The position numbers were made by a program, and so were the translations under genes. Shown piece by piece: positions 2,635 through 41,001 of a DNA stretch of 64,000 nt. The stretch covers positions 64,448,763-64,512,762 of the forward strand of contig CM075773.1 of NCBI GenBank assembly GCA_037974665.1, given 5' to 3'. This DNA is from Ehretia macrophylla (lineage: Eukaryota > Streptophyta > Magnoliopsida > Boraginales > Ehretiaceae). Within the stretch, counting starts at the first letter, position 1; each line of letters begins with the position of its first letter. A model generated the notes under the pieces. It made no database searches and was not told the origin of the DNA. It saw only the letters and a list, made by a program, of their open reading frames with translations.

Positions 2635-2643
2635 TATTATTTA

Positions 2644-2865
2644 TGATAAATAGCACCATAGCCATTTATATTTAACCGAAAGTGCACAACATCCCCCTAC
2701 GATTTTAAAAGTGCACCAGAACCCCCTATGGTTTGAAAAAGTAGCACACGTGTCCCCTCTATTATTTTTTTGTCAAGTTTCTTAATGGAAATTGCTAAAA
2801 GACGCAAATACCCTCAATTATTTTTCTTTTATCTTTTTTCCCCTTTTTCCTTTTGTTATATCCAG

Positions 2866-2911
<46 letters not shown>

Positions 2912-3591
2912 ATAAAACTAAAAAAAATAAAAATAATATATAATAGATAATATCATAAGTGTGTATATACATACATACATATATATATTATCCAGAAAAA
3001 CAAAAACAAAAATAATAATAATATATGATTTGGGGGGTAGGTGGAATCCGACGGGGCTGGGGGGAAAGGGGTTTGTCGGGGCAGGGCTGGGTTGGGTAGG
3101 GGAGGGGTTCCGACGGGGTTGGGGGGCACGAGAGGGTGTCCAACGGGGCTGGTGCTGGGGGTGGGGGTAGGGGTGGGAGGTGCAATAGGGCTTGGGGGTG
3201 GGGTAAGGGGGGGGGGGGGAGGGAGGGGAGGGGAAGGGGGTTGGGGGTGTTGGCTGGGTAAGGAAGATAATGGTTTTTTTTTCTATATTTTTTTTTTTGA
3301 AAATTAGATTGCGAGAAAAAGAAAAGAAAATAATATATATATATATATATATAAAATAATGGCATTTTTGTCCAATTATGTAACATTTTAAGCCAAAAAC
3401 CATGAACAATCGCACTTAGTGCGCGTGCAATGCACTCTCCGTTAAAAGTAACGATTTTTTTGATAAAGAGGATTGTGATGTTACGTTTTTAAAACCACAT
3501 GGAGTTTCGGTGTATTTTTAAAACAACAATCAACAGAGGGGTGTTATGTGTAATTTTGACTAACCATAGGAAGGTATGGTATTATTTATCA
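2644..3591. mobile_element. Foldback (Mutator-like) element with 9-bp TSD and G-rich core
   Basis: Flanked by perfect direct repeats TATTATTTA (2635-2643 and 3592-3600), the 9-bp duplication expected of Mutator-like transposition. The 5' arm begins TGATAAATAGCACCATA and the 3' arm ends in the inverse. The arms contain repeated motifs of the type AAAGTGCACCAGAACCCCC. The middle holds a TA microsatellite (about 2880-2910) and a strongly G-rich tract on the plus strand (about 3030-3260). Long ORFs across the G-rich tract on both strands are composition artefacts. Same family as 37544-38466 and 39984-41001. Confidence 0.88.
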
Positions 3592-3600
3592 TATTATTTA

Positions 3601-4956
3601 TTATATTCAACAGTGAAAGCTACCATCTACACAATTTATACTATAGATTTACCTTACAATCAACTCCTTGCTTTCAACTGCACTAGAAGTGTATGGCAAA
3701 TGAAGATGTGTGTTTTATGTGCGTCTGGGCGAGGGCAATAAAACAAAGAGCTCCATTTCTTTTCCTATTTCATAATTTTAATTTATTTATTGTTCTTTCT
3801 CTTTATTTTTTCTTGTTTTCGCTTTTCTTCTTCCTTTAACATCTCCTCCGCTTGACAGATATATTGACTTCACAATTAGCTTCTACTCGTTATGGGCTCT
3901 TTTAAATTGAAATTGTTCAACATTTAAATCAAACATTTCTTAATTTACATCAACTAACTCAAATATAGTCTAGAAAATTACTCAATTTGGGAATGTCTTT
4001 AAATTTGAGTCTCTTTCCAATAGATTCTAATTACATCTTTACAATTATTGCATGAAGATTAGTCCTTGTACTTTCGAATATGTATCACCTCTTGGTTATT
4101 GTATTTTTGTTTTCGTAAAAAGGTGATAAAATAGAGTTAAGAGTCAAACTATCTAATGGTATTTTAGTCATTTGGTCTAATTGTATGATTCTTATTTTAA
4201 GTGTGAGAAGTTTCGAGATCCGTTCTCAATTGTAATATTTTAAGTAATGTAAAATGACTTAAACCTTCCTTAAATCTTTTTTTTTTTTTAAAAATCTAAT
4301 GATATTTTTACCTAAACTACTTTCATGTTACGTCTCTTAAAGGCTAATTTAGATTTGAATATCCGCTATGGAGATTGCACGTATGATGCAATGATTACCG
4401 GAACTTCACTAGCAATGATTAGCATGCAGAATGGGTTGGATTGCCTCTTGATAGATATTAGATACCAAGACATAATTTGTGGCACATGAAACCTTCTACA
4501 AAGTATTGATGGTTTTCTTTTACCAAAACAAATATTAATTACTCCATCAATTAAAAGATTAAATTACTAGAAAATAATATATAAATAAAATTTATTATAT
4601 ATTTATTATTTTTAAACGCCTCCTTACGTGTAGGTAAAATTCATTTTGAACTTTACATGTGAATATTTATTTTATTTTTGTTTTTAAACGAGTGAAGCCA
4701 AGATCTACAAGATCTCTTTTAATAATTTGAACTTACTATACTAAATTACCACATTATTATATCTATTTTTTTTATCTCTCTTACAAAAAGTATTGAAGTT
4801 CGTGATCAACGGATGAAGTGATAGCCTACTTGCTACAGATTAGATTTTGAGGTTGAAAGATTCTACTTTAATTTTTCCTATGACTAACAGAGTGGGCCTT
4901 TGTGCTAGTTATATTTAGTTTTTACAATAAATAAATATAATTGTATTACTTATTTA
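3601..4956. other. Intergenic, no gene recognised
   Basis: AT-rich sequence with no ORF showing a domain, splice-consistent exon or RNA gene. A homopyrimidine stretch lies at about 3750-3850. Nothing else is supported. Confidence 0.4.
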
Positions 4957-4965
4957 TATGTTATA

Positions 4966-5467
4966 GGGTGAATAGTTCTAAATCTCCCTGTGGTCAAACG
5001 AAACTAGTTATAACTCTCTTGTGGTCCAAAAAATATAGTCGGATCCCACTATGGTCTACCCGTTGATGCACACTCCCTCCGTCAAATTTTCTGTCAAAAC
5101 TGACGAAAAGTGTACCACACGCGCGTAAAATGAGATTTTTATTGGTTTTTAACGTATTTAATAATAAAATAATATTAATAATTAAAAAATAATAATTTTT
5201 TTTCTTTTCATTTTCACCTATTTTTTTATTTATTACTAAATAAAAATATATATATATTATTTTATTACTAAATTTGTTAAAAACTAATAAAAATCGCATT
5301 TTACGTACGTGTGGTACACTTTCCGTCAGTTTTGACGGAAAATTTAACGGAGGGGAGTGGTGTGCATCAATGGGTAGACCACAAAGGGGTCCGACTATAT
5401 TTTTTAGACTACAGAAGGATTATAGTTAGTTTCGCTTGACTACAAGAGGATCCGGGCCTATTCACCC
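4966..5467. mobile_element. 502-bp foldback element with 9-bp TSD
   Basis: Perfect direct repeats TATGTTATA (4957-4965 and 5468-5476) bracket an almost completely palindromic element. It starts GGGTGAATAGTTCTAAATC and ends in the inverse CTATTCACCC. The arms (about 200 bp) carry the typical TGTGGTC/GACCACA units and the motif CGTCAAATTTTCTGTCAAAA, meeting at an AT-rich centre. There is no coding capacity. Mutator-like by TSD length. Confidence 0.88.
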
Positions 5468-5656
5468 TATGTTATATGGATTGTTCACTCTACAGCGAAT
5501 TATTATACATATAATTTCTTTCCCTTGAGATGCAAGGATATATAATTATTGACTCAAAATCTGGTTTTATCTATTAAATTAATATGTTAAACCTACACCA
5601 GTAGATATCGAAAAGAAATGTTTAAGCTCAAGGATTAAGCAGTAACAAAGTTCACG

Positions 5657-6166
5657 TACGTCTTCTTTTTTTTTTTTAATGCTCGTTTAGTCGAAGAATT
5701 TGGAGAAAGAGCATGAAAAAAATAAGAATCAATGTCATGGGCATTCTATGGGATCGAACTCTATTAGGCTGTAGCAGGATTGCAAAAAGAAATATTCTTC
5801 AAGCTTCATTAGTTAAGCTGTCATTCACATCTACCATTTACCACCTGTGGAATGAACAAAATGCCAGAATCTTCAAGAATGAGTTCGTCACGAAAGATCA
5901 AGTCAAGAAGAAAATCACGCATGATATTCGGTACAAGATGCTAACAGGCAAGAAATTTAGTGATAATAGACAAAATAGAGAACTTTGTAATATAAAGAAC
6001 TTTAATGAGATTTTTTTTTTTTTGCTCAGCAACCTTAATGAGCTTATTGTCTAGGGTTCGAGGATATATTTTTGATTATCATTATGTTTTAGCTTTTAAC
6101 TTGTAAAAGGCTTTGTCAATATTTTTTTGATAATGAAATGAAATTTCTCTTACTAACCAGAAAAAA
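5657..6166 (+). mobile_element. 5'-truncated LINE (L1-type) 3' end with A tail
   Basis: An ORF at 5713-6054 contains a segment (residues about 33-77, reading TSTIYHLWNEQNARIFKN) typical of the C-terminal region of plant L1 reverse transcriptase polyproteins, downstream of the RT domain. It is followed by a 3' UTR ending in an A run at 6161-6168. A possible short TSD, AAAGTTCAC, occurs at 5648-5656 and just after the tail. Endonuclease and RT are missing, so the copy is dead on arrival. The 5' boundary is uncertain by tens of bases. Confidence 0.65.
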
Positions 6167-6179
6167 AAGTTCACATCTT

Positions 6180-9100
6180 TTTTTTTTTCTTAATTCGTTG
6201 AGATAAACAACTTAACATTAATCAAGACAATGAAATTGCCTCCACTTTGCTTACACCAGAAGACTCAAAATAAAAAACAAGAAAACTCCAAAAAGAAGAT
6301 GCCACATTTATACTTGCAAAGGTGAGAAAGGAAAGTAAAAGTTGTTCATTCATGAATCAAAAGGTCAAGAAGATGTGCATATATTGGGACAAATAGCTGG
6401 ACACGAAATTCATAATTTTAAGTGAATCTAATGTGATTGTGTTGAATTTCTCTCTCTCCATGTAAAGACATATTTACAATCCAATCATCTTGAAGGTCAA
6501 AACAAGTAACAATCCAAAGTGCACATCACGTTAGGTCAAAAGGGACAGATTTTGAAGTGGGACTCAAATCAACCGGCCTTTGGCCACAATCTAAATTGTG
6601 GCCAACTTCTCTTTCTATGTTCTAATGATGATGCCTCATTTATAGTCTTTCTTCTTTCCCACTGTTTTTTCTGCTATTCCCTCTTCATAATGATAATTGT
6701 GACAAGAACCCTTTTTCTCTTTGCTCAATGAGAACTCATGGAGTTTACTTAATTAGAAGATTCCATTCTTAAAGATTAGTTTAAGCATATTAATGTAAGA
6801 AATGTTAAATACTACTCTATTTATGTCATTCATTTATTATTTTTTATTTAAAAGTTTAATTAGTATATTAAAATAATAAATTTTTTTCAATATATCAACT
6901 AAATATTCGCATACAAAATAATAAATAAATAATTAAAATAAAGTGATATTTAATAATTCTTGATATATAAACTAGCCGACATAAAGAGCAAACAGCTAAG
7001 ATTTTCTGGCATGGACGAGAATTTTTTTTTATCTCAAAAGATTCAACTCAATGATAGTACTTGGAGACCATGCATGCAAAAGGTTGTTTGCCTTCCCTCT
7101 TTTCCTACAAAAAGCTCTTTGTTCTCCTCAATATTTTGACAAGTAGTTCTTTGAATCAAGTGTAAGTGCGAAGCATCATATCTTCTATCACCCTTCTTTT
7201 AGTTCACTTTGTAGATTATGAAACAAACATTTTTAGACGACTGTTTCTTTCATTCAAGACAGCTGGTTTCGTCTTATGAGATCCATTGCAATCATGAGAA
7301 TTGGAATATGCAACACCAACCCACTTACATAATTTATCAAGTCCGAGACGAAGAGAATGAGCAACCAGAGCACTTGTTCGTGCAGTTTGACCGCATTTGT
7401 TGAATTGACATTTTGCAGGCATTTTACTTTAACACATCCCAATTCGTCTTTTTGTTCCGGTGACTAGGGGCTTCTTCATCTTCGAGATATCAAATTAATT
7501 GGTTTACATTATCTAATAAGTTAAAATTTTAGATTAAGTGGTCGTTTAAAATAGTATTAGAATTGGATCTTTAGTTTAATTATATTCATTTACGTATGAC
7601 TCATTTATTTTCGGTTCGCTCTCGTTGTGTGTCCCAATATCAACTCTCGATTCTCGATTCTCAATTCTCGTCTGGTTACACATGATGGGGTGTTGGAATA
7701 TATATTTCTCCTATATAAAAAATCATAAATTCTAAAATCATCTAATAAAATTTTAGACTACTCCACCTAGTACTAATTGATTTTAATGTACAACCACATG
7801 ATTTGTAACACGGGCCAGGTCATGGGTTCAAGTCTCGGTACTATCAAATCAAGTGGTCACCTAAGATCAACAACTCAGATATGAGGGACACAATAATATT
7901 CTTAACGTAATTTAACTTGCATCCATAATCTATCTCTGGGCCACTATATGAAATAATAATGATTACAACATTTTAATTACTTTATGTACATAGAAAGTTT
8001 AAATCTTTTTAATTTTATGTATAGAAAAGTCTAAACTTTAATCGACATTTTCTACAAACAACACAAATTTTATTACATAGCTATATTTTTTTTAACAGAT
8101 AAAAGACTATTAAATACACTATCTAGACGTTCACACCCACCCCATATGTGTGACATGGGACAATTAATTATAAGTTGGAAAGTTATGATTATAAAAAAAT
8201 TAGTGCTAATCCTACTTAATTATACAGGTATCTCTAGCCTTATTGGACTTGTATTATCTTCAACATGACTTGCGTTTGAAACTTGAGCAAAATCCAAATT
8301 TTTCATCCCAGTGGAAGCCCCGACGCTCATGCAATATAGGGTGGGAAAGGGAAAGAAATAATTTTCACAACTCGTTAATCTTTTGATAATTGAGATAAAA
8401 AGTAGGTGGTATAATAGATTGGTGAAATTATAATACGAGTATGGCTATTATCATCACTTACATCCTTTTAGTTTGCGTGCAGTATAGCTAGTGCATAGAA
8501 GATCTTTAAATGTCACATGAAATCCTTGAAGATGAAGAGTTTTTTGGATTTTCAGGCTGTTGATCTTGATCAGATTCAGAACCAATTATTTAGAAAGCTC
8601 GTTGTGAAAAGACAAAAATAGCTTTATCATAACGAAAAATACTACATCTCAGATTGGTACTCTTGTATAATTTAATGACACACTATGTCTAAAATTACAC
8701 TTTCTTTTTCTTTGATCATTTTCTAATTCAAACAAGAAATCATAAAAATCCCTTCGTTTTCTTCTATCCGTGGAGGGTACCTCATTTTCTTTTCATTCCT
8801 TTATTATTTTCAAACTCCCCTCCCTTTCATATCCCTCGCGATTCCATACATAGTGTTAGCCGTGGACAGTTAAAAAGTCCTTTGGCCACTCGAAGTGCAT
8901 CAGCTTGTTGATGATGAAAATAAGAGTAAAAGCGATGATTTACAAGGAGACAAGAAGCCAATTTAACAGTATGTGGATAAAACAATAGATGAATTATCAG
9001 GTGGAATTGGTGAGAGATAGTCTGCATTTCAACTGTTCAGAAGTCTAAGTGAACTAAGTGGAGATATCTCACTCAGTTCATCATCTTCGATAAAGTTAGA

Positions 9101-10276: not shown

Positions 10277-13200
10277 GGGAAAATATCACATAACCCCCCT
10301 GTGATTTGTGAAACTATTACCCTACCCCCCTGTGTTTCTAAAACTTCAAGAATGCCCTCTGTGTTATTAGAAAGTTATCACACTACCCCTTCATGTCTTT
10401 TTTAAGTTATTAAATGTCAGTTTTGCCTTTTTATAATACATATTTTTTTTCTTTTTTTTCTTTCATTTTATTTATTTACCACTAAATAAAAAAATTTAAA
10501 AAAAAATTCATCTTCCCCCCCTCACCCCACGCCCACCCCACACACCACTCCCCTCCCCCCCACCCCTGCTGCTCCGAGCAGCAGATCGTTGGAGCAACAG
10601 CAGCAGCCCCCGACAAGTAGCAGTAGGGGTGGGGAGGGGGGGTGGGAGGGGGGAGGGCGTAGGGTAGTGTCACGCCCCAACTCGACCCCACCTACGATCA
10701 ATCAGGACGCAACGAAATTTCGGCAGTATAACGACAGTAAATAGGATACCGAGGCTCTAAACCAACCTCAATAGACATCATACATCAACTCCACAAACCA
10801 TACAACAAACAACTGCTCAATAAAATAACAACATACATCATAACCATATTATACAATAAATATTCCTCATTATACGCCTCCGTTCCAACATAATACATGA
10901 ACCTTAATATACATTACAAAAATATATTGAGCCAATCTAGCAACCTAATTATAAACAAAAGAAAGGCTACTAAGACAACATCAACTAATTCATTATCTTT
11001 TCAACATCTTTTACATTATGAACTACAAAGCATATAAAAGTCTACTAAGTTAATTACAGGATAGTAAAACAATACAACATCAAGGATAAGACTCCGGAAC
11101 ATAAGACTCATCCACGTAAGGCACATTTTCCACTTCAGGATGCACGTACCCATAATCTTGCGAAAGTACACCTGTAAGCATGCAATAATAGAGAGTGAGC
11201 TTATATAAAATAAGCCCAGTGAGGATCTGATAGATCTTGAGCAAGGTTTACTAAGCTCGTTGGAAATAATCCTTTGAGCAAGTAAATACACAATAACAAC
11301 AATAAAACTATCATCACATAACTATAATGACCAATCAATAAAGGATACACTAGTTGCTGTAGCTCCAAACACCATCACGATCACAACAGCCTTCTTGTGA
11401 CTCCCATAAACTCACGCACCCGAGGTACCCCAATAACCATTCCCTCCATGACACCTCCGTCATGCGAGTTTTAGGCAGTCTCTGGTAGTCATGCCGTTAT
11501 CAACCCGACAGCCCGATGCTGCCCGAGAGGTGGCATACACATACCAAAGATTCAGCAATAATAATAAACATCAATCATTCATAGGAGGACAGTCTAGCAG
11601 AACTACCTACCTCCCGGCATCAATCATCAATCAATAATCATCAATAATCATATTATCATCATAATAACATCAATAATCAATTTAACGACAAATAACTAAG
11701 TTAGATGACAAAGTAGGCCATCTAACCGAACATGCATTAAACACACAATCAAATCCTAGTTTACCCATCAACAACTCAAAATTCAATCACTCAAACCACA
11801 CCCAATCAACTAAGGCTCAATCTAACATTTTAAAGAAAGACAACCTAAACTTCAAATAATCATATCTTACATTCTACTAATCCAAACAACTCCAAATCAG
11901 TTTCAAACACTTACCCATTCAATCAACTACATTAGCCCCCTCGGAACCAACCAAAACACATCCAAATCATGCTCAATAACCCTAAAACCCTAGTGTGTCA
12001 TGGCTGAAATTTCCGGATTTTGGCACGGACATCACAATCGAAAATTCGGCACTACAACGGCGCTACCACGTAATTAACAAACTTTTAGAAATCGACGGCA
12101 ATCGATTCCGATCAATACAACTCAAAATAATCAACATTTAGCATATTAAACAACTTTAAATACCCGAAAAATAATAATTATGCTACAACCGTTCAAATCT
12201 CGTAGGATTACATATAAATGATCCCTAGCATGCATGGAACAATAATCTAACATCATATTAACATTCTAACGGTTCGATATTCAATTCTACGCAAAAATAC
12301 AAAAGATGAGTTTTGAGATCTAGAATTTTTCTCTCACCTTTGATGCAATAAAATCCTAGGAATGCGTGCAATGCGTGCCCAACAAATGGAATCCAACTCG
12401 GCACGAAATTCTACGGACAAAAACTAGCTTTTTCTTTGAAATTTTGCTTTGAAAACCTTGAAAACTCTTTGGCTTATTCTCTCATGAAACTCTCGGCCAT
12501 GTGTGTGAAATAGAAGGTGTTTTTGTGCTTTTGCAATGTGTGTTGGTGATATAAGCTTAAAAGTCAACATTTTAAATGAAGTCAAAGTTGAATTAACTTA
12601 GTATTTTTGTGTTTTCTTGACTTTAAATGCATTTTCTTGATCACCAAAGTTCAAAACAATTATTCAACACCCAAGATAGCTCAAGTAGGTTATTTTTAGG
12701 TGACAAGAAGTTTTACAACCAAACAATTTCACACGAGTCGGCTTAAAACTCAATTTTCGCAAAAGTCGGTGTAAAAACCCTAATAAATTTCTAAGCCGAT
12801 TTTAAAACTGTTAATATCAAACACAGGTCTATTAAAGTCCATGGACTAGGTCTAGAAGGGTTAAAAAGACCAGTTTCAAAATTTTAGCAGACGTGTTTCG
12901 AAAATACTATTCACTGAAAATCGACGATAAAATTTCTGACTCCGTTTTTTATGAAAATTTCATGAATGCACATTTAGCATGTTCTAGGAGTATTGATACT
13001 AAAATTACCACATTCTAAGTCACATAGCACATAGACAGGTTAATTCACGCAAAACGAGATAAAGCACACAAAACGAGATAAGATAGAAAAGTGGGGTTTC
13101 ACAGGTAGGGTGGGGAAGATGAATATTTTTTTATTTTTTTATTTTTTTATTTAGTTGTAAATAATTAAAAAAGAAGGAAAAAAAAGAAAAAAATATATAT

Positions 13201-13364
13201 GTATTATAAAAGGGCAAAACTGACATTTAATAACTTAAAAAAAACATGAAGGGGGTAGTGTAATGACTTTCTAATAACACAGAGGGCATTCTTGAAGTTT
13301 TAGAAACACAAGGGAGTAGGGTGATAGTTTTACATATCACAGGGGGGTTATGTGATATTTTTCC
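10277..13364. mobile_element. Foldback (Mutator-like) element split by a solo LTR
   Basis: The left arm starts GGGAAAATATCACATAACC and the right arm ends in the inverse. The inverted arms extend about 230 bp and match closely, including phrases such as TTCAAGAATGCCCTCTGTG. The flanks are TATTATATT (10268-10276) and TATTATACT (13365-13373), a 9-bp TSD with one mismatch. Between the arms is a C-rich/G-rich core (about 10510-10660) interrupted by the LTR at 10668. With the LTR removed the element is about 650 bp. Confidence 0.85.
10668..13103 (-). mobile_element. Solo LTR of about 2.4 kb, probably Ty3/Gypsy
   Basis: It begins TGTCACGCCCCAACTCGACC and ends GGGGTTTCACA, so both ends obey TG...CA. 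The 5-bp direct repeats GGTAG flank it exactly (10663-10667 and 13104-13108). No internal gag-pol is present, so it is a solo LTR left by recombination between LTRs. I place it on the minus strand because a GGGGCGTGACA 3' end is common in plant Gypsy LTRs; orientation and family are inferences. Confidence 0.8.
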
Positions 13365-14903: not shown

Positions 14904-14964
<61 letters not shown>

Positions 14965-15059
14965 ATAATATCATGTTTAAATTTGATCAAAATATATAAT
15001 ATAACCCAATACTACTATTCTAAAAGTAATAACTAATAAAAAGTCCAATACTTTTTAAT

Positions 15060-17445: not shown

Positions 17446-17623
17446 TGATAACGTAGCTATCTGATTGGATTAGTATTAGATTTGGGTTGTATTTTGAATT
17501 TGTTTGAATTTGTTCTGTTGTAATCTTATCGTTAGGTAGTTCAGATATTGTGCTCATCTTGGTGTATTATAAATACTTTACATGCAGCTCATTGTGTAAT
17601 ATAAAAAACATTTTTCTCCTTCA
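17446..17623 (+). repeat. 5' LTR of copia element
   Basis: Starts TGATAACGTAGCTATCTGAT and ends TTCTCCTTCA, following TG...CA. It contains a TATA-like TATTATAAATAC at about 17566, a plausible element promoter. It differs from the 3' LTR at four positions: two G/A, one C/T, one T/G. Confidence 0.95.
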
Positions 17624-17634
17624 TGGTATCAGAT
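17624..17634 (+). other. Primer binding site (initiator Met-tRNA)
   Basis: TGGTATCAGA directly abuts the end of the 5' LTR. It is complementary to the 3' end of plant initiator methionine tRNA, the usual copia primer. Pairing weakens after ten bases, where the canonical GC is replaced by TT. Confidence 0.9.
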
Positions 17635-17836
17635 TCTAGGTATATCACGATCCTCTTTTTCTCAACCACAGCAAACAAATTCTGATTCTACCTTCAAACA
17701 GCACGATAGCTTAGGCAATTACCTTTTCCTATCTATTCATTTCAAACTCTGTTTTCCAGATTCCTTTCTTTTTCCTGTCCCACTCTCTGTCCTTTTCTCT
17801 GTCACCTCTTTTTTTTTCTCTTTCTTCTCCAACGTC

Positions 17837-20800
17837 ATGTCATCCAAAGAGTCTTCCCCTTCTCAGTTTTCCCTTCCTGCAACTCACGTTTGACTTTATG
17901 TCACTGTTACTCTTAACAACACAAACTATCTTACCTGGAAAAATCAAATGCTCAATTTCTTCACGTTCAACTCTCTTCTCAGATATATTGATGGATCCAT
18001 CCCCTCTCCCAAAAAGGCCAAGGACGACTCTGCTCCGGCTTCATCCTCCTCCATCACACTTGATGACTGGACGAAATATAATAGCTATGTCACTGCATGT
18101 ATCACTGCAACACTTTCTAACTCCTTAGTGCACCAAGCTTTGGGTTTTACTACTGCCCATGAGCTTTGGGTGTCTCTTAAGGAGTCTTTTCTTCAACAGT
18201 CAGTGGCTCGCAAATCACTTCTTCGTGCACAGCTTCTTTCTCTGAAGAAGGGCTCATCCTCCATCTCTGATTACATGAATCACATCCGTGCTCTCTCCAC
18301 ATCTCTTGCTTCCATTGGCGATCCGCTCAGTGATATTGACTTGGTAGTAGTGGCTTTAAATGGTCTTCCGACTCAATACAGACCTTTTGTGACATCAATT
18401 GAGAATTTTCCCTTACCACCCTCCTTCAATAAACTTCGTGCGAAACTTCTCACCTATGAACAACGTTTGGTTCTTGAGGGTGAAGATCCTGTCTCTACTG
18501 ATGGCTCCTCTTTACATGCCTTAACAACTCAATTGCAGTCCACATCTCTCAACAATCAAGCCTTGGTCACTACTACTAGTTTCAAACCTTTATTGTCTAC
18601 CTCTCAAAATTCCTCTTCCAAAAATTATGGCACTGGCGCTTCTAATTCCTCCTACAAAGGGAAGTGTCAGATCTGTAAGAAATTTGGTCATTCAGCTCAA
18701 CGTTGTCGCTATCGGTATGCCCAGTCCAAATCTCACTCATCCTCCTCACAGTTTGCTGGTCTTCATTATCAGCCGTGTGCGCTTCCTCCTCTTTTGCCCA
18801 CTCCTTCGTCTCATTCTTGGCTTCCAAACTCAGGGGCTACCTCCCATATGACAAACGACCCCTCTGTCTTGCAGCAACTTTAGCCATATAATGGAGCCGA
18901 TCACGTGCTAGTTGGTGATGGTAAGCCTCTTGTTATTACTCATATTGGTCAATCCTCTATTCCTAGCTCATCTCACTCCTTAACTCTTTCCAATATACTG
19001 CATGTTCTGCGTCTTATGCATAGCTTATTATCTATTTCTCAGTTTACTAAGGATAATGATGTGTCTGTTGAATTTTTCCCTTCTCACTGTGTTGTCAAGG
19101 ATCTTCGCACGGGAACACAACTTCTCACCGGTCCAGTTAATTCCAGTCTCTACACTCTTCTAGTGTCCACTTCTTCATCTGCTTCATCGCCTCAAGTGTT
19201 CACTACCTCTTCTGCTGACGTGTCTCTCTGGCATAGTAGATTGGGTCATCCCTCGCAGCCTGTTCTTTCTCAACTACGGAAGCAAGCTTTTATTCAGTTT
19301 AAAGATTTTTTAGTTGCAAATAAATTGTATAATGCCTGTATGCAAGGAAAAAGTCACAAGCTTCCCTTTCTCCCTTCTAGTCATAGATCATCTGTTCCTT
19401 TAGAGTTGGTGCATTGTGATGTCTGGGGCCCTGCTCCAGTGGCATCATTTTCTGGCTATCGATTCTTTGTAATCTTTGTTGACAATTTTAGTCGTTTCAC
19501 TTGGATTTATCCATTGCGCAATAAAAGTGATGTTGCTTCCTGTTTTATTCAATTTCAAACTCTATCTGAATCCCTCTATTCTACAAAAATCAAATTTTTT
19601 CAGTGTGACGAGGCTCCTGAATTAACTAAAGGTGCTCTTCATGCTCATTTTACAAAATGTGGAATTGCTTATCGCATTTCTTGTCCCCATACCCCAGAAC
19701 AGAATGGATTGGCTGAACGTAAAATTCGACACATTACTGAAATGGGCACTACAATTCTGTTCCATGCTTCTATGCCTAAACAATTTTGGTATGAGGCGTT
19801 TAACACTGCAGTATATCTCATTAATCGTTTGCCTACTCCCTTGTTAAGCAATCACTCTCCCTTTCGTAGACTTCATAATTCTGATCCTGATTATTCTTTT
19901 TTCAGAGTTTTCGGATGTTTATGTTATCCATATCTGGAGGCATACAAACCCGATAAGTTGAGTCCCAAGTCACTACCTTGTGTGTTTCTCGGTTATAGTG
20001 ATCAACATCGTGGGTACCGTTGTTTTCATATATCCACTAGTAGAGTCTATATTTCTCGCCATGTCTGTTTTGATGAGACTGTTTATCCGTTTGCATCCAG
20101 TAACATGTCTTGCTCCTCTCAGCTTTCTTTGCTTTCAAAATCACAATTTTCGTCCAAAACTATGCCAACCTCTCATGATATTCCTTCGTTACTTTACTCA
20201 TCCATCCCATCCCCTGTTCACGAGCCACTCAATACACCAGTTTTGTGTCCCATTCTACCAGCTTCTCACAGAGTTTTAGATACATTGTCGAGCTCACCTT
20301 CCTCTATTTCTTTAGTCACCAATTCCACTCCTCTAGCTCAGCAGCGTGTGTCGCATGTGTCGTTAGCTCACTTGCCTTCAGCTACTTCGAGTCCAACTCC
20401 CACGTTGCCTCCACCCTGTGTACAATTGTCTTCTCATTCAAGTAAAACACCTCCCTATGTTGTGTCCTCAAATTCGACATCACCCGCCTTCCCCATCACA
20501 TATCCTCAAGTTTTCCAGCCGACACGTAACCTATCCCCTAGCATTGACTCGCCTACTCCAGACAATAACTCTCCATTGACTTCTTCTTTGCCTTCTCTCA
20601 ACTTGGACCTCTTCCCATCAGGTGACATACATGCAATTCATCCAGACTCTTCTAGTCTACATCATGTTCAACACATCCTCTCTGATCTCTCACGTCCTAC
20701 TCCTCCTTCAACTCCTTCCCACGTTGTTGACAATACTCATCCGATGGTCACTAGATCGAAAGACAATACACGCACAATTAAATCACACCCAGATTTTGTT

Positions 20801-22395
20801 ACCTATACTGTTTCCACTACTTCACCATCTTCTGCTGATCTAAATATAACTGAACCTTCTACCTTCCTTCAAGCTCAAAAACAGAAACACTGGCGTGACG
20901 CCATGGAATTGGAATTCAATGCACTTCAGAAAAATAGCACTTGGACTCTCGTTCCAAAACCTCTCATGGGCAACATTGTGGGTTGTAAATGGGTGTATCG
21001 TGTGAAACGTAAACAGGATGGTTCGATTGAGCGTTTTAAAGCACGGTTAGTCGCCAAGGGTTACAGTCAAGAAGAGGGTATCGATTTTAATGAGACTTTC
21101 AGTCCGGTTGTCAAGCCTACAACAATTCGCATTATTCTCTGTATTGTTGTTTCAAAGAACTGGTCTATACGTCAATTGGACGTAAACAATGCTTTTCTTC
21201 ATGGATTGTTACAGGAAGAAGTTTATATGTCTCAGCCGCCAGGATTCACTCATTCAAGTTATCCTGATCATGTCTGCAAGCTTAACAAAGCGATTTATGG
21301 GCTCAAGCAGGCACCATGGGCCTGGTTTTCTCATTTAAGCTCTTATCTTTTATCTCTTGGTTTTATGTCGTCGACAGCTGATTCTTCATTATTTATTCGT
21401 GCCACTTCGCAGGATATCACATTATTATTGGTCTATGTTGATGACATCATACTCACTGGGAGTGATTCTACTACCGTTACCAAGCTCATTGAATCTTTGC
21501 ATACGCAGTTCTCTCTAAAAGATCTTGGCAGTTTATCTTTCTTTCTTGGCATACAGGTCTGTTCTACTTCCACAGGATTGCTTCTTCATCAACAAAAATA
21601 TGCTCACGATGTTCTCATTCGTGCAAACATGGCTAACGCAAAGGCTGTTGCTACTATTATCTCCCCAAATCACCAGCTTTCTCGTGACTCTGGGGATCCA
21701 TTTTTTGATCCAAAACTTTATCGGAGTACAGTAGGTGCCCTCCAGTACCTGACCATCATACGACCTGATATTGCTTTTGCAGTCAATAAAATCTGCCAAT
21801 TTATGCACGATCCAACGGATATTCACTGGGCAGCAGTAAAACGCATACTTAGGTACATTAAGATACATCCAGTCATGGTATTCACATAAAATCATCTCTA
21901 GATTTCTCTTTGCATGCATATTCTGATAGTGATTGGGCTAGTTGTGTGGATGATCGTCGGAGCACTCATGGCTATTGCATTTTCTTGGGTCCCAATTTTA
22001 TTTCTTGGGCAGCAAAGAAGCAATCTACTATTTCGAGATCAAGCACAGAAGCAGAATACAGAGCAATTGCATTCACTACTACTGAGTTGTGTTGGTTAAA
22101 ATCTTTGTTGTCTGAACTTAATCTTATTCTTATCTATTCTCTTATGCTCTAGTGTGATAACATCGGCGCAACCTATCTCACCGCCAATCCGGTACATCAT
22201 GCGCGCACAAAGCATATAGAGATTGACATTCATTTTGTTTGTGAAAAGGTGGCGTCCAATGAGCTTCAGGTTCGTTATATCTCAACGCTTGATCAATTAG
22301 CGGACATTATGACCAAAGGTCTAACTATTGCTCGTTTTCAACTCCTAAGGTCCAAGCTCACCATCCACGACACGGCTTCGCTTGAGGGGGCATGA
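17837..22395 (+). pseudogene. Gag-Pol polyprotein, multiply broken
   Basis: One reading frame carries, in order, Gag with a CCHC knuckle (18665-18706), protease, integrase with the LWHSRLGHP block, reverse transcriptase with YVDD (21434-21445) and RNase H ending at a TGA that overlaps the 3' LTR (22393-22395). It begins at ATG 17837. Lesions: TGA at 17891, TAG at 18881, a one-base loss near 21862, and TAG at 22150. Key residues are also altered: protease DSGA is NSGA (18827), and the first cysteine of the integrase zinc pair is tyrosine (19328). The copy cannot make a working polyprotein. Ancestral residues are inferred from family consensus. Confidence 0.95.
22382..22390 (+). other. Polypurine tract
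   Basis: TTGAGGGGG lies just upstream of the 3' LTR, separated by CA, as expected for plus-strand priming in copia elements. Confidence 0.75.
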
Positions 22396-22570
22396 TAACG
22401 TAGCTATCTAATTGGATTAGTATTAGATTTGGGTTGTATTTTGAATTTGTTTGAATTTGTTCTATTGTAATCTTATCGTTAGGTAGTTCAGATATTGTGC
22501 TCATCTTGGTGTATTATAAATATTGTACATGCAGCTCATTGTGTAATATAAAAAACATTTTTCTCCTTCA
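22393..22570 (+). repeat. 3' LTR of copia element
   Basis: 178 bp, 174 matching the 5' LTR. Same TG...CA ends. Its first three bases provide the polyprotein stop codon. Confidence 0.95.
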
Positions 22571-22575
22571 ATGGT

Positions 22576-33008: not shown

Positions 33009-33017
33009 CTTTTTTTT

Positions 33018-33410: not shown

Positions 33411-33689
33411 CTTTTTTTTATGGGATTCTTCTTTTTCTATTTTAGTGAGCAAGCTTTTTTTTATTATATTTTTGTTCCCCATTTTAGAGGGAGACATGTA
33501 TTTTCATCTCGTATGATGACATTTCAACAATCCTCTTATTGTAGAAACGCTTGTTTCATACAAGTTACGAACAAGTACGTCTCAATTTGAGACTATAATA
33601 GCACTATATATACTATGAAAAATTTATTAAGAACAATGATTTCGCAGTATAACAATACTATATACAACATAAAAACGATAGAGAAGAAT

Positions 33690-35060
33690 AATATATGGGA
33701 TGACAAGTGCATGGCAATTTCAACTTTTTGTAATTGTTATTGTTTTCTATAATTTTTTGATTTAGTTTTTTAGGACTTTATCAAGTTATTTTAACAAGAC
33801 TTTTAGTTGTTCATTTTAGGTCTTATTAGCTAGGTAGCTAATATTTAGTTCTAAGGTCTTTTAAAAAGGTTATTTTTAGCATATTCAGTTTAATTTCTAA
33901 CAACTATATATACCCTAAAGGTTTTTAAAAACAATTTACTTAGCAAATATATATATATATATATATATATAGCATGTAGTGCACCGATGAGAATAATAAA
34001 AAAGATTATTCATTATTCCCATCTTTGTGGATTCAAGGGTTCTCCAAGTAGATTCTTATGGTTGAGGTTTGGAAACATTTAGAGGACTCTAAATATTTTA
34101 ATTATGAGATAATTTTAGAAGTAAATTACTGGTGTTGAAGAATTTTCTCTTCAAGAGCAATGTGAAGATCTTGAAAAAGAAGTAAATTAAAGAAATTAAT
34201 GTATGATCTAATCACGATGATGCTGGAGTTTATATGGTCAATTCCGAAGTTTTGGTAGCTTTCGGACATGATGACCACGTTGAATGCAAGCACATGTAGA
34301 GGATTTTCATCGTACTATTTCGAACGCGTCATACAAATTGAGATATATAAATTTTGAAAAGTCCGTGTCTAAAAATTGAACGAAATAGTAAAGTAATAGC
34401 TCATCTTGAAGAAAAATTCTAAATTGAAAATTGAATTAGTATTCCCTTATCGCCTTTAATTTGACTAATCGGTGCATGACTGAGACATTATCGTTACATC
34501 ACATAACTTTCAGTTTAGGTGGATGGACTCGTTTAAAATGGTCTCATTATGAAGAAAGATGATTTTGATTTGAAAAGACGAGTTGAACCTCTTTTACATA
34601 TTGATAGTAAGAGATTGGAAATAGTTTTTTTTTTTTTTTTTTTTGGGGTAAATTCAAATACTTGAACATGTTGATTTTATAGGGATAACAATTGAAGGTG
34701 AGAACCACAAGATTTTGAAAAAGTCATCAAGATTTATTCAAAGTACGCATTTTCCTGGAATGGGTAATTGATACATGTGGAAATCAACACAAGAATTGCG
34801 CCTCAACTTCAGTTATTTGCTTTATCATGAGATTAATTTTCTTATTCTAGCCTTTTAGGATTTTATTTAGTTTAGCATGAATTTAAACGTTTCAATAAAT
34901 AACCTTAGTTCCTATTAGACAGCTATATTAGTTCAAACAAAACAAAAAAAATAAAAAGATAGCTATACTGTTTAGAAAAGTTCATAGATTATTTTCGAGC
35001 AACTATATGGGTTTTTTTTTTTTTTTCTTGTCTAGGTTATTTCACAAAGATTTGCCCGAG
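33690..35060. other. Possible degenerate LTR-type element
   Basis: Two diverged segments (about 33760-33900 and 34850-34935) share phrases such as TTTTAGGACTTTAT/TTTTAGGATTTTAT and TAGACAGCTATATTAGTTC-like text. They could be worn LTRs around about 1 kb with no recognisable coding sequence. A TA repeat lies at 33948-33971. Weak. Confidence 0.25.
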
Positions 35061-35065
35061 TAAGA

Positions 35066-35099
35066 AGAAAAAATATTTTACAGCAAACAAACGGAGCCT
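35066..35099. mobile_element. 3'-end fragment of the GGCTCCG MITE family
   Basis: AAAATATTTTACAGCAAAC followed by AAACGGAGCC matches the right terminus of the 1808-2278 MITE. The rest of the element is missing. Confidence 0.7.
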
Positions 35100-37534
35100 A
35101 GATGAATAAGTAACTTAATTATTTAATGGGTTGCTTTTTTTTATTGTTCGGAATATGTTAAATAATCATTGCACCCAAAAATTTATCAATTAATAATCAA
35201 ATTTCACCAACTAAATTCTCATATTATCACTAAAAAAAAATGTTAAATGGGAAAAGGAAACTACCTCCAAGATTCTAACTGAAGCTATCTTGACGTACTT
35301 GATGTCATTACCAGGTCAATGCCAATTTTTCCCCATCTCTTGCTGGTGGAAGTGGACTATATTTTTATGAAATAATCTATGATGGCATCATTGCATGAAA
35401 AGGAACTTAATTTACTATAGTAGCAGTACCTATGACTCTCATTTCTCATTTTTCCTTCTTTTTAATTTGTTTGCCTTTATATTTTTAAACTCTTGCACAT
35501 TAAAAGCCAAAAAGATTCTACAGTTTAGCAAACGAGTGCTAGAAGGTTGGAACATAACCAAGTAACTAATTAAATCCTTTTAAATCCGACCATATTTTTT
35601 TAAGTATCGGAACTATCCTCTGAAATAAATTATGTTTTATTTTCTTCTTCAATTATAAGTTTTATTACCAAAGAGATAAGTCAGACAAATTTTACCTTAA
35701 CAGTAACGAAATAGAATATATATATATATATATAAGATACAATGTACTACTATTTCATGAGATTTGTTATCTCAAAATAAATTTAATGCGATCTTGCATG
35801 AAGTGACTTCCTAATTATCAAAAAATAAAACAGAAAAATGAAAGTACCCTAGAAATTAAAAAGTAAGTTTTAAATCTATTGGATTTCGCCAAGGGCTTGC
35901 AAACTAGGTGCCATGGTCAAGTACTCACACACAAATGTAAAAGAAAAGAAAATTAGAGTAATGTAACTGCTTTCAAAATTAATTCAGGGGCGGATGAAAC
36001 TTAGAGCAAGTAAGAGCAGCCTTCACCAATTTTATAGAATTTTTTAAATATCTATATATTTCCAATTCGAAAACTTAATTAATCTTTATTAAGATTATAT
36101 ATATTTATATAATTATTAAATCATGTATTATAACTCTCATTATAAATAATTCTAAATCGGCCTCTCTTCAAAAAGACTCACAAAAAGACATAACGTAAGG
36201 GTTTTTTTTTTTTTTTTTTTTTTTTTTACGATGAGGAACTGACTTTAGACATGTTCATTATGGTTCTATCCCAATGCTATAATTCCCATAGTATAGCAGC
36301 ACATCCCAGTGCATCCTCTTGATCAAAGGCCAAAGTCGATCCACATACATGTCTTGCTTTTACTGTTATATCTGATGTTACTCTACGTACTGCTTGACAA
36401 GATAATATTTGTAACTAAGGAAAGTGTTTAAGTTCAAATTTAAAATCTTTGATTACAATAAGTCTAATAAATCAGTCACCTGATCACTTTACGCATCCAC
36501 CCTTTGGAACAAAATGGGGTCATTTTGTTCCTCCAAATATTCCATCCCGTGATGACTAAGTCATCGCCTGGTCGTTTTTGGTGATCTCCATTTCAATATT
36601 ACTCAGCTGATGTTCTTCACAACAGCCATCAAAGCTTTGAAGTCTTAGCCATATATGGCTTTAGTTTGAGGAAATTTGGTTAAAAAACCAGTAATGGCAG
36701 ACCAATCTTAGTCGGCATTTGATTTTTAACATTTCTATGTAGTCAAATATAGCACAAAAACCGCGTGTTTTCAACTGCACACTTCCACTACTTCTATAAT
36801 GCACTAAATTTTCATATGTAGGTCATAGTGCGTATTAAAATTCTTCTAATCATACTTTGACCATCTACAGTCTAATAGTATATATTACTGATCTTTTTTC
36901 TTTTTATAACAGAGACGATTCTGAAAAAATCTTTGTAACTGATATTTGAGTTCACACAAGAAGTACGATTTAAGTTAATTAAATATAAAATTTATTAAAA
37001 TTAATTTATTCAAACTCAAGACGTGAACAAATTTTCGGTTCAAACTCTAAATTAATGTATACTATCTTCTTTGATGGATAACCTCTCTCAATCTGAAAAA
37101 AGTGATTTCCACTGACCAAAGTTCCATTAAAATGTCCCACATAATATATGGTGCAACTATTGATACATGGTGCATAATACGCGATAATATAGATGCGTTT
37201 TGCATTTCTAATTTCACACTACTTTCTTTAAGATAGTGAAGTACTTTTAAAAGTAAAAATATAAGCACTTTTTTTCTTCTTCATTTTATTTTATTTTATT
37301 GGTGAAATAGTTATGGGCATGCTCATTGATATCAACCCTTGGTGGATGGATACTATGTTCTAGACCAAGAAAGTTGTGAGTTGATCTCTTTGTTGGAAAA
37401 AATGAAGTCAAAAGCCAATAGAATCTTGAATATGGAGCTTAGCAGGTCAGGGATTAGTGGGAGACCAGCATTCCTTTTGCCTTCCCAGCTAGCCAGCTAA
37501 ACACGTCGAATTACATGATATCTTCAACCTCAAG
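35100..37534. other. Intergenic, no gene recognised
   Basis: AT-rich with TA and T tracts (35718-35733, 36200-36227). Part of about 36950-37050 resembles 54540-54660 (shared AAAATTTATTAAAATTAAT), suggesting an old dispersed repeat. No coding sequence is supported. Confidence 0.4.
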
Positions 37535-37543
37535 ATGAATAAA

Positions 37544-38466
37544 GGATAAATAGCAACACAACCCCTATATTTTATTAAAAGTGTACAGAACTTTTTTGTA
37601 GTTTTAAAAGTGTATTAGAAGTCCTCGTAATTTTAAAAATGTAGCACCACAGTCCGCTCCTTTAAAAAAACTGTTACTTTTAATGGAGAGTGCGTTATAC
37701 ACGCGTTTGGTGTGATTTTTCATATTTTTAGGCTTAAATTATTACTTAATTGGACAAAAAATGCCCTTATATATAATTTTTTTTTCTTTTCTTTTTCTCC
37801 CAGTGCAATTTTTACAAAATAAAATAAAATAAAAAATAAAAATACATCTTCTTCCTCAAACCACCGTCCCCCCACCCCTCCCCCCCTCACCCACACCCAT
37901 CGTAACCCCCTACCCCACCGTCACACCAACCACCTACCCCGTCAACCCCTCTATCCCCGTCACCCCACCGTTACCACCCCCCTCCCCTCCCACCCACCCC
38001 CACCCCTACCCCAAAACTTGCAAATTTTATTTTTATATATATATATATATATAAACATGTATAAATTATAAATATCCATGGGTATATATATGTACACACG
38101 TGTGTGTATATTATATATATATATATGTGTGTGTGTGTGTATGTGTGTGTGTTTGTGTGTGTCAGTGTGTGTCTCTGTGTGTGTGTGTGTGTGTGTCTAT
38201 GTGTATGTGTGTGTGTGTGTGTCTGTAAACAAAAAAGAAAAGGAAAAGAGAAAAAAATAAAAATTGAAGGACATTTAAGTCTTTTTATATAATTCAGTTA
38301 AATTTGTTGACGGAAAATTAGAGAGGGGTGAGTGTGCACGGTTTTAAGACCACAGGGGGTTCCGGTGCACTTTTAAAAGCACAGGGGGTTCCGGTGCACT
38401 TTTGAAACCACAGGGGGGTCCTATGCATTTTTGCTAAAATATAGGGGGTTGTGGTGCTAGTTACCC
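37544..38466. mobile_element. Foldback (Mutator-like) element with 9-bp TSD and C-rich core
   Basis: Perfect direct repeats ATGAATAAA (37535-37543 and 38467-38475). It opens GGATAAATAGCAACACAACC and closes with the inverse, CTAGTTACCC. The right arm shows the arm-building unit twice in tandem (CAGGGGGTTCCGGTGCACTT at about 38354 and 38382). The core is a C-rich tract (about 37862-38015) followed by TA and a long TG repeat (about 38128-38222). ORFs across the TG repeat are artefacts. Confidence 0.92.
38128..38222. repeat. TG dinucleotide microsatellite
   Basis: Interrupted TG repeat inside the foldback element; likely length-polymorphic. Confidence 0.9.
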
Positions 38467-38475
38467 ATGAATAAA

Positions 38476-39082
38476 TAAACAAGGAGAGGGATAACCATAT
38501 AAATTGTCTTTAAATATTGGATAAAATGATCGTTTAATGACTTTTTATAACTAAAAGTTTTAATTTTAAAGTTATGTTATCTAATCATACATATTGTTTT
38601 GTCCTTGATTATTTTGAAGCGTGGGTTTAGAGCGAACGCTTATTGTATTATGGGGTTTATAGTCTTACAATGAATTTAATGACAAAATCTGCCTTTAGGA
38701 TAAGTCGAATTCTAATCTTACAGATCCTCTATCAATGTTTGAAGAAACGAAAATAGAGCAAAATGCCTTTATTTGTATACTTCATAAGAAAATGCCAAGA
38801 TTCGAGTACTTGTTTCTGCATAATACAAATATATATACCAGAATATTTTATTTGTAAAGATGGAGAAAGAGAAGTTAAAAGTTTTCGATTTAAGGAAAAC
38901 GAATTAGATTCAAGACCCATTTATAGGCATAAAACACCTCTCATAATAGTTGCAAGTCTTATACAATCCTATGAAAATGTACCTATCCAATTAAACACGT
39001 ATGTCTAGCTTGATCGGTATGTTGGTTACTCGAAGGGAAATGTTGCACATACCATTAGAAGTGGTCCAAAACATTTCACAAA
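38476..39082. other. Intergenic, no gene
   Basis: About 600 bp between two foldback elements. Contains ORFs of about 60-80 residues on both strands without domains. Confidence 0.4.
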
Positions 39083-39092
39083 GTTTAATTTA

Positions 39093-39490
39093 GGGAAAAA
39101 ATCATTTTAGTCCTTAAGTAATATATTAAATCCTAAATAGGTCCTTGTGTATTTGAAAAACTCTTCACAAGTCCTTTACATTTAAAAAACTCTTCACAAT
39201 TCCATTTTTGCCCTTAGTGGATGCTGACATGGACAAGCATGGCTTTATTTTTCTTGCCTCTTGCAAGAATATGGCTGGAACTTAAAGAAAAAATAAAAAA
39301 TATTGATAAACATTATATATATATATTTTTTGGTTATGCTGAATTTTTATTGCTTTAACGAGATTCCATTTTTTTCGACCAAAAAAAAAAAAAAAAAAAA
39401 AACGAGATTTCAGTTTTGTTAGTTTTGAAATGCTGAATTTTTATTGCCTCATGCAACGATATAATGGGAATTGGGTATTTGTTAAACCAA

Positions 39491-39524
<34 letters not shown>

Positions 39525-39973
39525 ATGGTTTTTTTCCAGGCATTTTTTTGGTTAAAAAATATTTTTTGCAAATAAATTTTTTAACCAAAAAATATTTTTT
39601 AACCAAAAAAAAAGCCTGGGAAAAAAACCAATATATCGTTGCATGAGGCAATAAAAATTCAGCATTTCAAAACTAACAAAACTGGGATCTCGTTTTTTTT
39701 TTTTTTTTTTTTTGGTAAAAAAAAATGGAATCTCGTTGAAGTAATAAAAATTCAGCATGACCAAAAAAAATATATATATAATGTTTATCAATATTTTTTA
39801 TTTTTTTCTTTAAGTTCCTGTCATATTCTTGCAAGAGGCAAGAATAATATAGTCATGCTTGTCCATGTCAGCATCCACTAAGGGCAAAAATGGAATTGTG
39901 AAGGGTTTTTTAAATACACAATGACCTATTTGGGACTTAATATATTACTCAAGGACTAAAATGGTTTTTTCCC
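39093..39973. mobile_element. Near-perfect 881-bp foldback (giant hairpin)
   Basis: The element starts GGGAAAAAATCATTTTAGTC and ends in the inverse. Arms of about 420 bp are almost identical along their length (for example GCCTCTTGCAAGAATATG in both) and meet in an AT-rich centre. The flanks are GTTTAATTTA (39083-39092 and 39974-39983), a perfect 10-bp duplication. Transcription through it would give a long double-stranded RNA. Arm identity suggests a recent origin or gene conversion. No coding capacity. Confidence 0.9.
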
Positions 39974-39983
39974 GTTTAATTTA

Positions 39984-41001
39984 GGATAAATAGTACCATA
40001 ACTCCCTATAATTTTTTAAAAGTTTACAAGACCTCCCTATGTTTTCAAAAGTGTACCGGATTTCCTATGATTTAAAAAACATAACACTACAATCCTCTCC
40101 GTTAAAAAAAATCGTTACTTTTAATGCAATTGTTCATATTTTTTGACTTAAATTATTACTTGTTTTAACAAAAATGACCCTATATTATATACATGTTTTT
40201 TACTTTCATTTTCCTTTTCTTTTCACCAAAAAGAAGATTAAAGAAAATTTTTAAAAAATATTCATCTTCCTCACCCATCCCCTCACCTTACCCACCCCTA
40301 ACCCCATACCTACCCCCATCAGCCCATTTTAATCTCCGCTCCCCCCCTGCGCCCCCCTCCCTCCCTCCCTCCCTCAACCTCTACCCCCCATCAGCCCCTC
40401 TACGCCCCTACCTCTACCCACCCGTCAGCCCCCACTACCCCTACCACCCCCACCCATGATCAACCCCTTACCCCTCATCCCCACCCCTACCCTCATCTAC
40501 CCCCACCTCGTTAGCCCCCTATCTAACCCCACCCAACCCCTGTCAACCCCTACCCTTCCTTCCCCCTCCCCCTCCCCCCCCCCTCCCACCCTCACCTCTA
40601 TTAGCCCTCCACCCCCACCCGTCACCCCATCCCCCACCCCCACCCCCACCCCACCCCACCCCACCTTGTCAACAACCCCAACCCCACCCTTGCGATTTTT
40701 TTTTTGTGTATATAAATATGTATAAATAATAAATATACATGCATATATATACACGCGTGTGTGTATTTATATTGTGTATTTGTGTGTATGTGTATATATA
40801 AAAGGAGAAAAGAGAAAAAAAAGAGAGGGGTATTTAAGTCTTTTTTTATAATTTAGTTAACTTTGTTAATGGAAAGGTGGGAAGGGGGTGCATGCATGTG
40901 CTTATTTTTCATAAATACAGTGGGATTCAGTGCACTTTTAAAAATATATGGAGTTTTGTACACTTTTAATAAATTATAAGAGACTATAGTGTTATTTACC
41001 C
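39984..41001. mobile_element. Foldback (Mutator-like) element with 9-bp TSD and C-rich core
   Basis: Perfect 9-bp repeats TTTAATTTA (39975-39983 and 41002-41010). It starts GGATAAATAGTACCATAACT and ends GTTATTTACCC in inverse. A very C-rich core runs about 40262-40690, then a TA/TG repeat. Same family as 37544-38466 and 2644-3591. It inserted at the right-hand target duplication of the preceding foldback. Proline-rich ORFs here reflect the C tract, not a gene. Confidence 0.92.

What the first reader, a model, noticed from the sequence alone, without database searches (positions are those of the whole stretch)
2644..41001. A family of foldback elements with 9-bp TSDs and strand-biased poly-C/poly-G cores
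The copies at 2644-3591, 37544-38466 and 39984-41001 have perfect 9-bp duplications (TATTATTTA, ATGAATAAA, TTTAATTTA). They share the end GGATAAATAGCACCA. Each has a 150-430 bp tract that is C-rich on one strand, beside a TA/TG microsatellite. A fourth, 10277-13364, has the same plan. TSD length points to Mutator-like mobilisation. The G-rich strand has many G3-G5 runs and could form quadruplexes; why a transposon would keep such a core is unclear. As a family this may be undescribed.
Basis: partly seen in the sequence, partly recalled or inferred. Interest (0 to 1): 0.8.

Follow-up and report, generated by a model that had tools for sequence, protein, structure and literature searches.

The report
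Mutator-like transposons with C-rich cores
These are small defective copies of a plant jumping gene of the Mutator type that carry along a stretch very rich in C; the four larger copies with enzyme sequence that were examined, and about a hundred short descendants, lack that stretch, so it looks like a passenger rather than a working part.

Summary
The three main elements are real, with exact coordinates and perfect 9-bp duplications. The window lies in a 1.58-Gb genome that can be searched. Of 43 loci examined (40 of 74 genome elements plus 3 in the window), 41 had a candidate far end; 31 of these had a 9-bp duplication with at most one mismatch, against 1.3 expected. Four 6.2-6.4-kb elements with the same ends and 9-bp duplications carry MuDR-type transposase sequence; one has an unbroken 1026-aa frame with MULE, DBD_Tnp_Mut and SWIM domains. 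This is a non-autonomous MULE family. The C-rich core is one inherited segment in one orientation, a fast-changing degenerate minisatellite. It is dispensable: none of the four transposase-bearing elements has it, and a 424-bp derivative without it has 108 junction matches. C content falls with distance from the arm consensus. Corrections: none of the three has the exact 15-base left end; inverted repeats are only about 105 bp, so they are not long foldbacks; the fourth belongs to another MULE-like family with a palindromic C/G core and a nested LTR-like insertion.

The parts
2644..3591 (-). Element W1: non-autonomous MULE, 948 bp, C-rich strand is the minus strand
   Evidence: TSD and ends; core; orientation
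2635..2643 (.). Left 9-bp TSD of W1, TATTATTTA
3592..3600 (.). Right 9-bp TSD of W1, TATTATTTA
3032..3258 (-). C-rich core of W1 (227 nt, 63% C on the minus strand; 6 G4 motifs on the plus strand)
37544..38466 (+). Element W2: non-autonomous MULE, 923 bp
   Evidence: core
37535..37543 (.). Left 9-bp TSD of W2, ATGAATAAA
38467..38475 (.). Right 9-bp TSD of W2, ATGAATAAA
37861..38012 (+). C-rich core of W2 (152 nt, 66% C; 4 G4 motifs on the minus strand)
38126..38226 (+). TG microsatellite beside the W2 core
38342..38432 (+). 29-bp subterminal repeats (3.1 copies) in and next to the right inverted repeat of W2
39984..41001 (+). Element W3: non-autonomous MULE, 1018 bp
   Evidence: core
39975..39983 (.). 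Left 9-bp TSD of W3, TTTAATTTA
41002..41010 (.). Right 9-bp TSD of W3, TTTAATTTA
40269..40689 (+). C-rich core of W3 (421 nt, 63% C; 8 G4 motifs on the minus strand)
   Evidence: tandem units
10277..13364 (.). Fourth element: a different non-autonomous MULE-like family (ends GGGAAAATATCACAT), palindromic C-rich/G-rich core, TSD TATTATATT/TATTATACT
10668..13103 (.). LTR-like insertion (TG...CA, TSD GGTAG) nested in the fourth element
   Evidence: read by eye; no coding sequence or second LTR tested

Best explanation
The three elements belong to a plant family of non-autonomous Mutator-like elements, mobilised in trans by a MuDR-type MULE transposase that binds ends of the type GGG/GGATAAATAGCACCA and makes 9-bp target duplications. 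An ancestral element lost its transposase gene and came to hold a C-rich segment between its left and right arms. That segment, probably a captured C-rich fragment or a small tract that grew by slippage, became a degenerate minisatellite. It was copied with the element in one fixed orientation and changes faster than the arms. It is a passenger, not needed for transposition, and its C runs decay in copies further from the consensus. Shown: ends, TSDs, transposase-bearing relatives, single origin and orientation of the core, dispensability of the core, rapid core turnover. Inferred: trans-mobilisation by this transposase, how the core arose, and absence of any function.
For: TSDs: of 41 loci with a candidate far end (43 examined), 20 perfect and 11 with one mismatch; shuffled pairing gives 0.57 perfect and 1.34 with at most one mismatch; perfect repeats at other lengths from 6 to 12 number at most 2. 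Transposase-bearing elements with the same ends: 6351 bp (TSD 8 of 9), 6152 bp (TSD TAAACTTTT), 6406 bp (TSD TAAAAGAAA, unbroken 1026-aa ORF) and 6209 bp (TSD CATAGATTA). PF10551, PF03108 and PF04434 above their cut-offs in the 1026-aa protein; PF10551 in the 6351- and 6152-bp elements; an 83% match to this transposase in the 6209-bp element. Inner arms of the 6406-bp element match the left and right inner arms of 24 core-bearing copies in the same orientation (0.62 vs 0.51, and 0.60 vs 0.50; shuffled about 0.47), as do those of the 6351-bp element (0.61 vs 0.51, 0.62 vs 0.51). Core on the same strand relative to the arms in 24 of 24 copies. Left- and right-junction words, where both were found within 2 kb, are in the same order and strand in 22 of 22 genome places. 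Core lost in one deletion derivative with 108 junction matches, control 0. No C-rich tract in any of the four transposase-bearing elements. Core identity 0.50 vs 0.49 shuffled, arm tips 0.74 vs 0.46. C fraction vs arm distance from consensus, Spearman -0.66, n=24.
Against: Only 40 of 74 genome elements were read, and they were chosen by one exact end. Arm tips of W1-W3 match the 6406-bp element at only 0.67-0.79, so it may not be the enzyme that moved these old copies. The 6152-bp element fits less well: its tips match at 0.58-0.61, its left inner arm shows no preference (0.50 vs 0.50) and its right one a weak one (0.58 vs 0.51); the arms of the 6209-bp element were not compared. Core-bearing copies with nearly identical arms exist (L016, L017, L020, L026, left tips 0.93-0.96), so the core was carried through transposition and was not lost at once; in the 54 pairs with left tips above 0.8, core identity (0.57) is above the shuffled value (0.52), so some core sequence is shared among close copies. 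The C-content trend could reflect different subfamilies rather than decay.
Confidence: 0.86

Rival explanations
1. The core is functional: its G-rich strand forms quadruplexes (or the C-rich strand i-motifs) that stall replication or open the DNA and so help excision or transposition of the non-autonomous element.
For: 26 of 26 analysed cores have at least one G4 motif on the G strand and none on the C strand. Composition and strand are kept although sequence mostly is not. The longest C runs, up to 22, are in copies close to the consensus.
Against: All four transposase-bearing elements examined lack the core. The core-less 424-bp derivative has 108 junction matches, 66 exact. C content falls with distance from consensus.
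Confidence: 0.06
2. The core is an old Pack-MULE capture: a C-rich fragment of a host gene taken up between the arms and then expanded. This is a variant of the best explanation, about the origin of the core.
For: Two of the 40 fetched copies carry different gene fragments between the arms: a protein kinase piece in L048 and a PADRE piece in L019. Conserved words flank the core on both sides. Pack-MULEs of rice and maize prefer GC-rich sequence (passage in PMC3310237).
Against: No source gene was identified, and the core now looks like a minisatellite (GTCA words 42 vs 6.9 shuffled, 12 of 24 spacings between 14 and 19 nt), so its origin may be erased.
Confidence: 0.4
3. The elements belong to another 9-bp superfamily or are moved by an unrelated transposase, and the matching ends are coincidence.
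For: Other superfamilies with nearby TSD lengths exist (recalled).
Against: A 15-base end, subterminal arms and orientation-specific inner arms are shared with elements encoding MULE transposase and having the same 9-bp TSD.
Confidence: 0.03

Closest known systems
MuDR-type Mutator-like elements (MULEs) of plants
   Same: 9-bp TSD, inverted repeats of 100-120 bp, transposase with MULE, DBD_Tnp_Mut and SWIM domains
   Different: W1-W3 have no transposase and hold a C-rich minisatellite core
Pack-MULEs
   Same: Two of the 40 fetched genome copies with the same ends hold fragments of host genes (protein kinase, PADRE)
   Different: W1-W3 hold a low-complexity C-rich tract with no recognised gene
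MuTAnT of Medicago (PMC4486113; passages seen)
   Same: Non-autonomous MULE family with an autonomous partner and 9-nt TSDs
   Different: MuTAnT is a foldback built of TIR modules and targets TA microsatellites; here the TSDs are AT-rich (92%), the microsatellite is inside the element and most of the element is not folded back
Rehavkus, and aphid Phantom MULEs with minisatellites (table passage in PMC6446971)
   Same: Minisatellite inside a MULE
   Different: Animal hosts; minisatellite listed with transposase-bearing elements; its base composition is not stated in the passage seen
G4-bearing plant transposons, e.g. in barley (PMC8041835; passages seen)
   Same: Transposons carry many of the G4 motifs
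   Different: There mainly LTR retrotransposons, with CACTA at 13%; 'Mutator' does not occur in the main text (its supplement was not seen)

Membership tests
Mutator-like elements (MULE), non-autonomous | 9-11 bp target site duplication (definition in PMC3310237) | tested here: met
   31 of 41 loci with at most one mismatch at 9 bp, 20 perfect; shuffled 1.34 and 0.57
Mutator-like elements (MULE), non-autonomous | Long terminal inverted repeats (typically 100-500 bp) | tested here: met
   About 105-120 bp; 69-75% identity in W1-W3, 88-91% in three of the four transposase-bearing copies, the fourth not measured
Mutator-like elements (MULE), non-autonomous | Ends shared with an element encoding MULE transposase | tested here: met
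   Four elements of 6.2-6.4 kb; PF10551 in three, and in the fourth (L055) an 83% match to that transposase with stops
Mutator-like elements (MULE), non-autonomous | Mobility in trans by that transposase | not testable with these tools
   Needs a transposition assay
Long foldback elements (FARE/MuTAnT type) | Element mostly made of two long inverted arms | tested here: not met
   Inner arms not inverted copies of each other: L vs R about 0.48; long inverted arms are seen in the different family at 10277-13364
Pack-MULE | Contains a fragment of a host gene | tested here: inconclusive
   Two sister copies do; the C-rich cores of W1-W3 were not searched against a gene set

The most novel reading that the evidence does not exclude
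A strand-fixed C-rich/G-quadruplex segment older than the split of two MULE families acts in cis, for example as a replication-pausing element, to help the spread of long non-autonomous copies, and is kept pure in the active lineage by selection or conversion while inserted copies decay.
Probability: 0.06. Interest if true: 0.65.

Novelty: new member of a known kind. Interest (0 to 1): 0.3.

Why it matters
One MULE family has spread G-quadruplex motifs over the genome: the word just after the core has 95 matches, on every one of the 20 contigs except C9. In this window 21 of 23 such motifs lie in four MULE-like elements. It is a natural comparison of a transposon with and without a structure-prone core, and here the core proves dispensable. 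Anyone mapping quadruplexes or minisatellites in plant genomes should screen for such families.

Tried and rejected
Rejected: L027 (4633 bp) as an autonomous element; its length comes from a copia-like insertion in the left arm. Rejected: the core as chance, since junction words recur genome-wide with reversed-pattern controls of 0. Rejected: 10277-13364 as the same family (different ends, palindromic core). The tip-similarity table for the first two transposase-bearing elements used free end gaps and gave false identities of 1.0; it is not used, and replace it. The script stopped with an error after two of four copies; one search completed the duplications but not the core scan. A first search for duplications at 4966 and 44052 found nothing because it asked for too long a matching tip; one search relaxed it. 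A similar CATCTTCC-type word at the left core edge of both families was seen by eye and not tested. No PDB chain matched the transposase by sequence. Literature: searches listed no paper whose title or abstract start names a C-rich-core MULE; one search listed 15 of 325 papers, and subscription journals are not held. I saw the outline and abstract of PMC3310237 and passages of PMC3310237, PMC8041835, PMC4486113 and PMC6446971.
Full report
Setting. The window lies in a genome of 1.58 Gb in 20 contigs (window = C10:64448763-64512762). Plant origin is inferred from the kinds of mobile elements and gene fragments (for example PADRE, which I recall as a plant domain).

Observation. W1 (2644-3591), W2 (37544-38466) and W3 (39984-41001) have perfect 9-bp duplications. 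A scan of the window for GG-starting inverted tips with perfect 9-bp duplications, 300-1500 bp apart, found W2, W3 and 4966-5467, and none in the reversed window. Each left end is one base away from GGATAAATAGCACCA, and no place in the window is among the 75 exact genome matches. Inverted similarity is limited to about 105-117 bp at 69-75%. The cores are 227, 152 and 421 nt.

Genome copies. The exact 15-mer occurs 75 times (reversed control 1), which I count as 74 elements because one element has it at both ends. A 26-base degenerate end with up to 2 mismatches occurs 1052 times (525 and 527 on the two strands, control 0, which lists only the first 100). With W1-W3, 43 loci were examined for duplications. 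Of these, 41 had a candidate far end; 20 had a perfect 9-bp TSD and 11 had one mismatch. Shuffled pairing gives 0.57 perfect and 1.34 with at most one mismatch, and perfect repeats at 6-8 or 10-12 bp number 2 or fewer. Two more (L019, L038) are perfect if the boundary moves by one base. L044 and L045 share one TSD and L033-L037 share one flank, so they look like duplicated loci, not independent insertions. The misses include copies with no convincing far end.

Transposase. Two of the 40 copies (L021, L024) extended beyond the first 6 kb and held frames with MULE transposase domains. Their far ends give elements of 6351 bp (TSD 8 of 9) and 6152 bp (TSD perfect). A protein search found close relatives of the L021 transposase elsewhere, five of them at 94-95% identity over at least 434 of 435 residues without internal stops. 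Two further places were fetched. L054 is a 6406-bp element with exact 15-base ends, TSD TAAAAGAAA and an unbroken 1026-aa frame. L055 is a 6209-bp element with TSD CATAGATTA and broken frames. The 1026-aa protein has PF10551, PF03108 and PF04434. None of the four has a C-rich or G-rich tract by the same scoring, and the last two have no G4 motif. Inner arms of the 6351- and 6406-bp elements match the left and right inner arms of the core-bearing copies in the same orientation. The 6152-bp element is more distant: its left inner arm shows no preference and its right one a weak one; the arms of L055 were not compared. The small elements thus read as internal replacements of an element of the 6351/6406-bp kind. 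This supports mobilisation by MULE transposase but does not demonstrate it.

Core. Of the 37 elements measured, 27 carry the family core (26 analysed, plus L027, which is interrupted by a copia-like insertion). The other ten: L019 and L048 hold captured gene fragments (PADRE and protein kinase), with a short C-rich piece each; L028, L029, L031 and L043 have no core; L021, measured there with a wrong far end, is the 6351-bp element; L034-L036, with no reliable far end, show only short G-rich stretches. Six fetched loci were not measured (L011, L024, L033, L037, L040, L046); of these L040 has a C-rich tract of 259 nt but a doubtful far end, and L046 a weak one. Core length in the 26 is 62-421 nt, median 143; all 26 have G4 motifs on the G strand and none on the C strand. 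Orientation relative to the inner arms is the same in 24 of 24 copies; L018, L019, L045 and L048 were left out as truncated, gene-bearing or duplicate. Genome-wide there are 61 left-junction words and 95 post-core words (controls 0); 22 pairs lie within 2 kb, all in the same order and strand, and 39 left-junction words had no such partner. The core is therefore one inherited segment. Inside it GTCA occurs 42 times against 6.9 in shuffles, and 12 of 24 spacings are 14-19 nt: a degenerate minisatellite. Aligned identity between cores over 276 pairs (0.50) is about that of shuffled cores (0.49), while arm tips stand at 0.74 against 0.46; in the 54 closest pairs the core reaches 0.57 against 0.52. 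Composition and strand persist; sequence is lost quickly.

Is the core needed? A 424-bp derivative (L029, L031, L043; 96.5-96.7% alike) lacks the core. Its left arm matches the core-bearing L020 at 94% over 228 bp. Its deletion junction occurs 108 times, 66 exactly, control 0. With the core-free transposase-bearing elements, this shows that the core is not required for movement. C fraction (Spearman -0.66) and longest C run (-0.51) fall with arm distance from consensus in 24 copies, T (0.42) and G (0.46) rise, A and core length show no clear trend. That fits decay of a passenger, with the caution that distance may partly reflect subfamily.

The fourth element (10277-13364) belongs to a family with ends GGGAAAATATCACAT (162 matches to a 27-base end with up to 2 mismatches, control 0). 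In all four copies examined a far end with a 9-bp TSD of at most one mismatch was found, two of them perfect; that search asked for such a TSD, so it is not an unbiased count. The core is C-rich on the left and G-rich on the right around a GCAGCAG-containing hinge in the two genome copies scanned (L051, L052) and in the window copy; L053 was not scanned. Its transposase was not sought.

Verdict. The core is best read as a passenger minisatellite rather than a kept working part. New member of a known kind; whether the family has a name was not testable here.

Noticed in passing
39093-39973: Another foldback (GGGAAAAAAT...ATTTTTTCCC) with a 10-bp duplication GTTTAATTTA; W3 sits directly in its right duplication, so TTTAATTTA occurs three times, as if two insertions used one target. 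Read by eye.
   Followed up: partly
4966-5467: Foldback with ends GGGTGAATAG and perfect TSD TATGTTATA, no C-rich core.
   Followed up: partly
44052-44507: Foldback with ends GGGTGAAGTG and TSD GCATTTTTA/GTATTTTTA.
   Followed up: partly
17446-22570: Copia-like element (named by eye) with 178-bp terminal repeats 98% alike and frames of 329 and 1001 aa.
   Followed up: no
98-830: Tandem arrays with periods 46-48, 94-95 and 189 bp, whose units contain CCCCCGTTAAGGACCTGACGTCC or close variants.
   Followed up: no
52007-52071: CCCCCT-rich tract outside any of the elements, with one G4 motif.
   Followed up: no
L019 and L048: Copies with the same ends that carry a PADRE-domain and a protein-kinase fragment: Pack-MULEs of this family.
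   Followed up: partly
C10:64524909-64525880, about 12 kb right of the window: Transposase fragment 92% identical to that of the 6351-bp element, with one stop.
   Followed up: no
C1:100586105-100586344 and C1:100764296-100764535: End pairs only 240 bp apart, perhaps an even shorter derivative.
   Followed up: no
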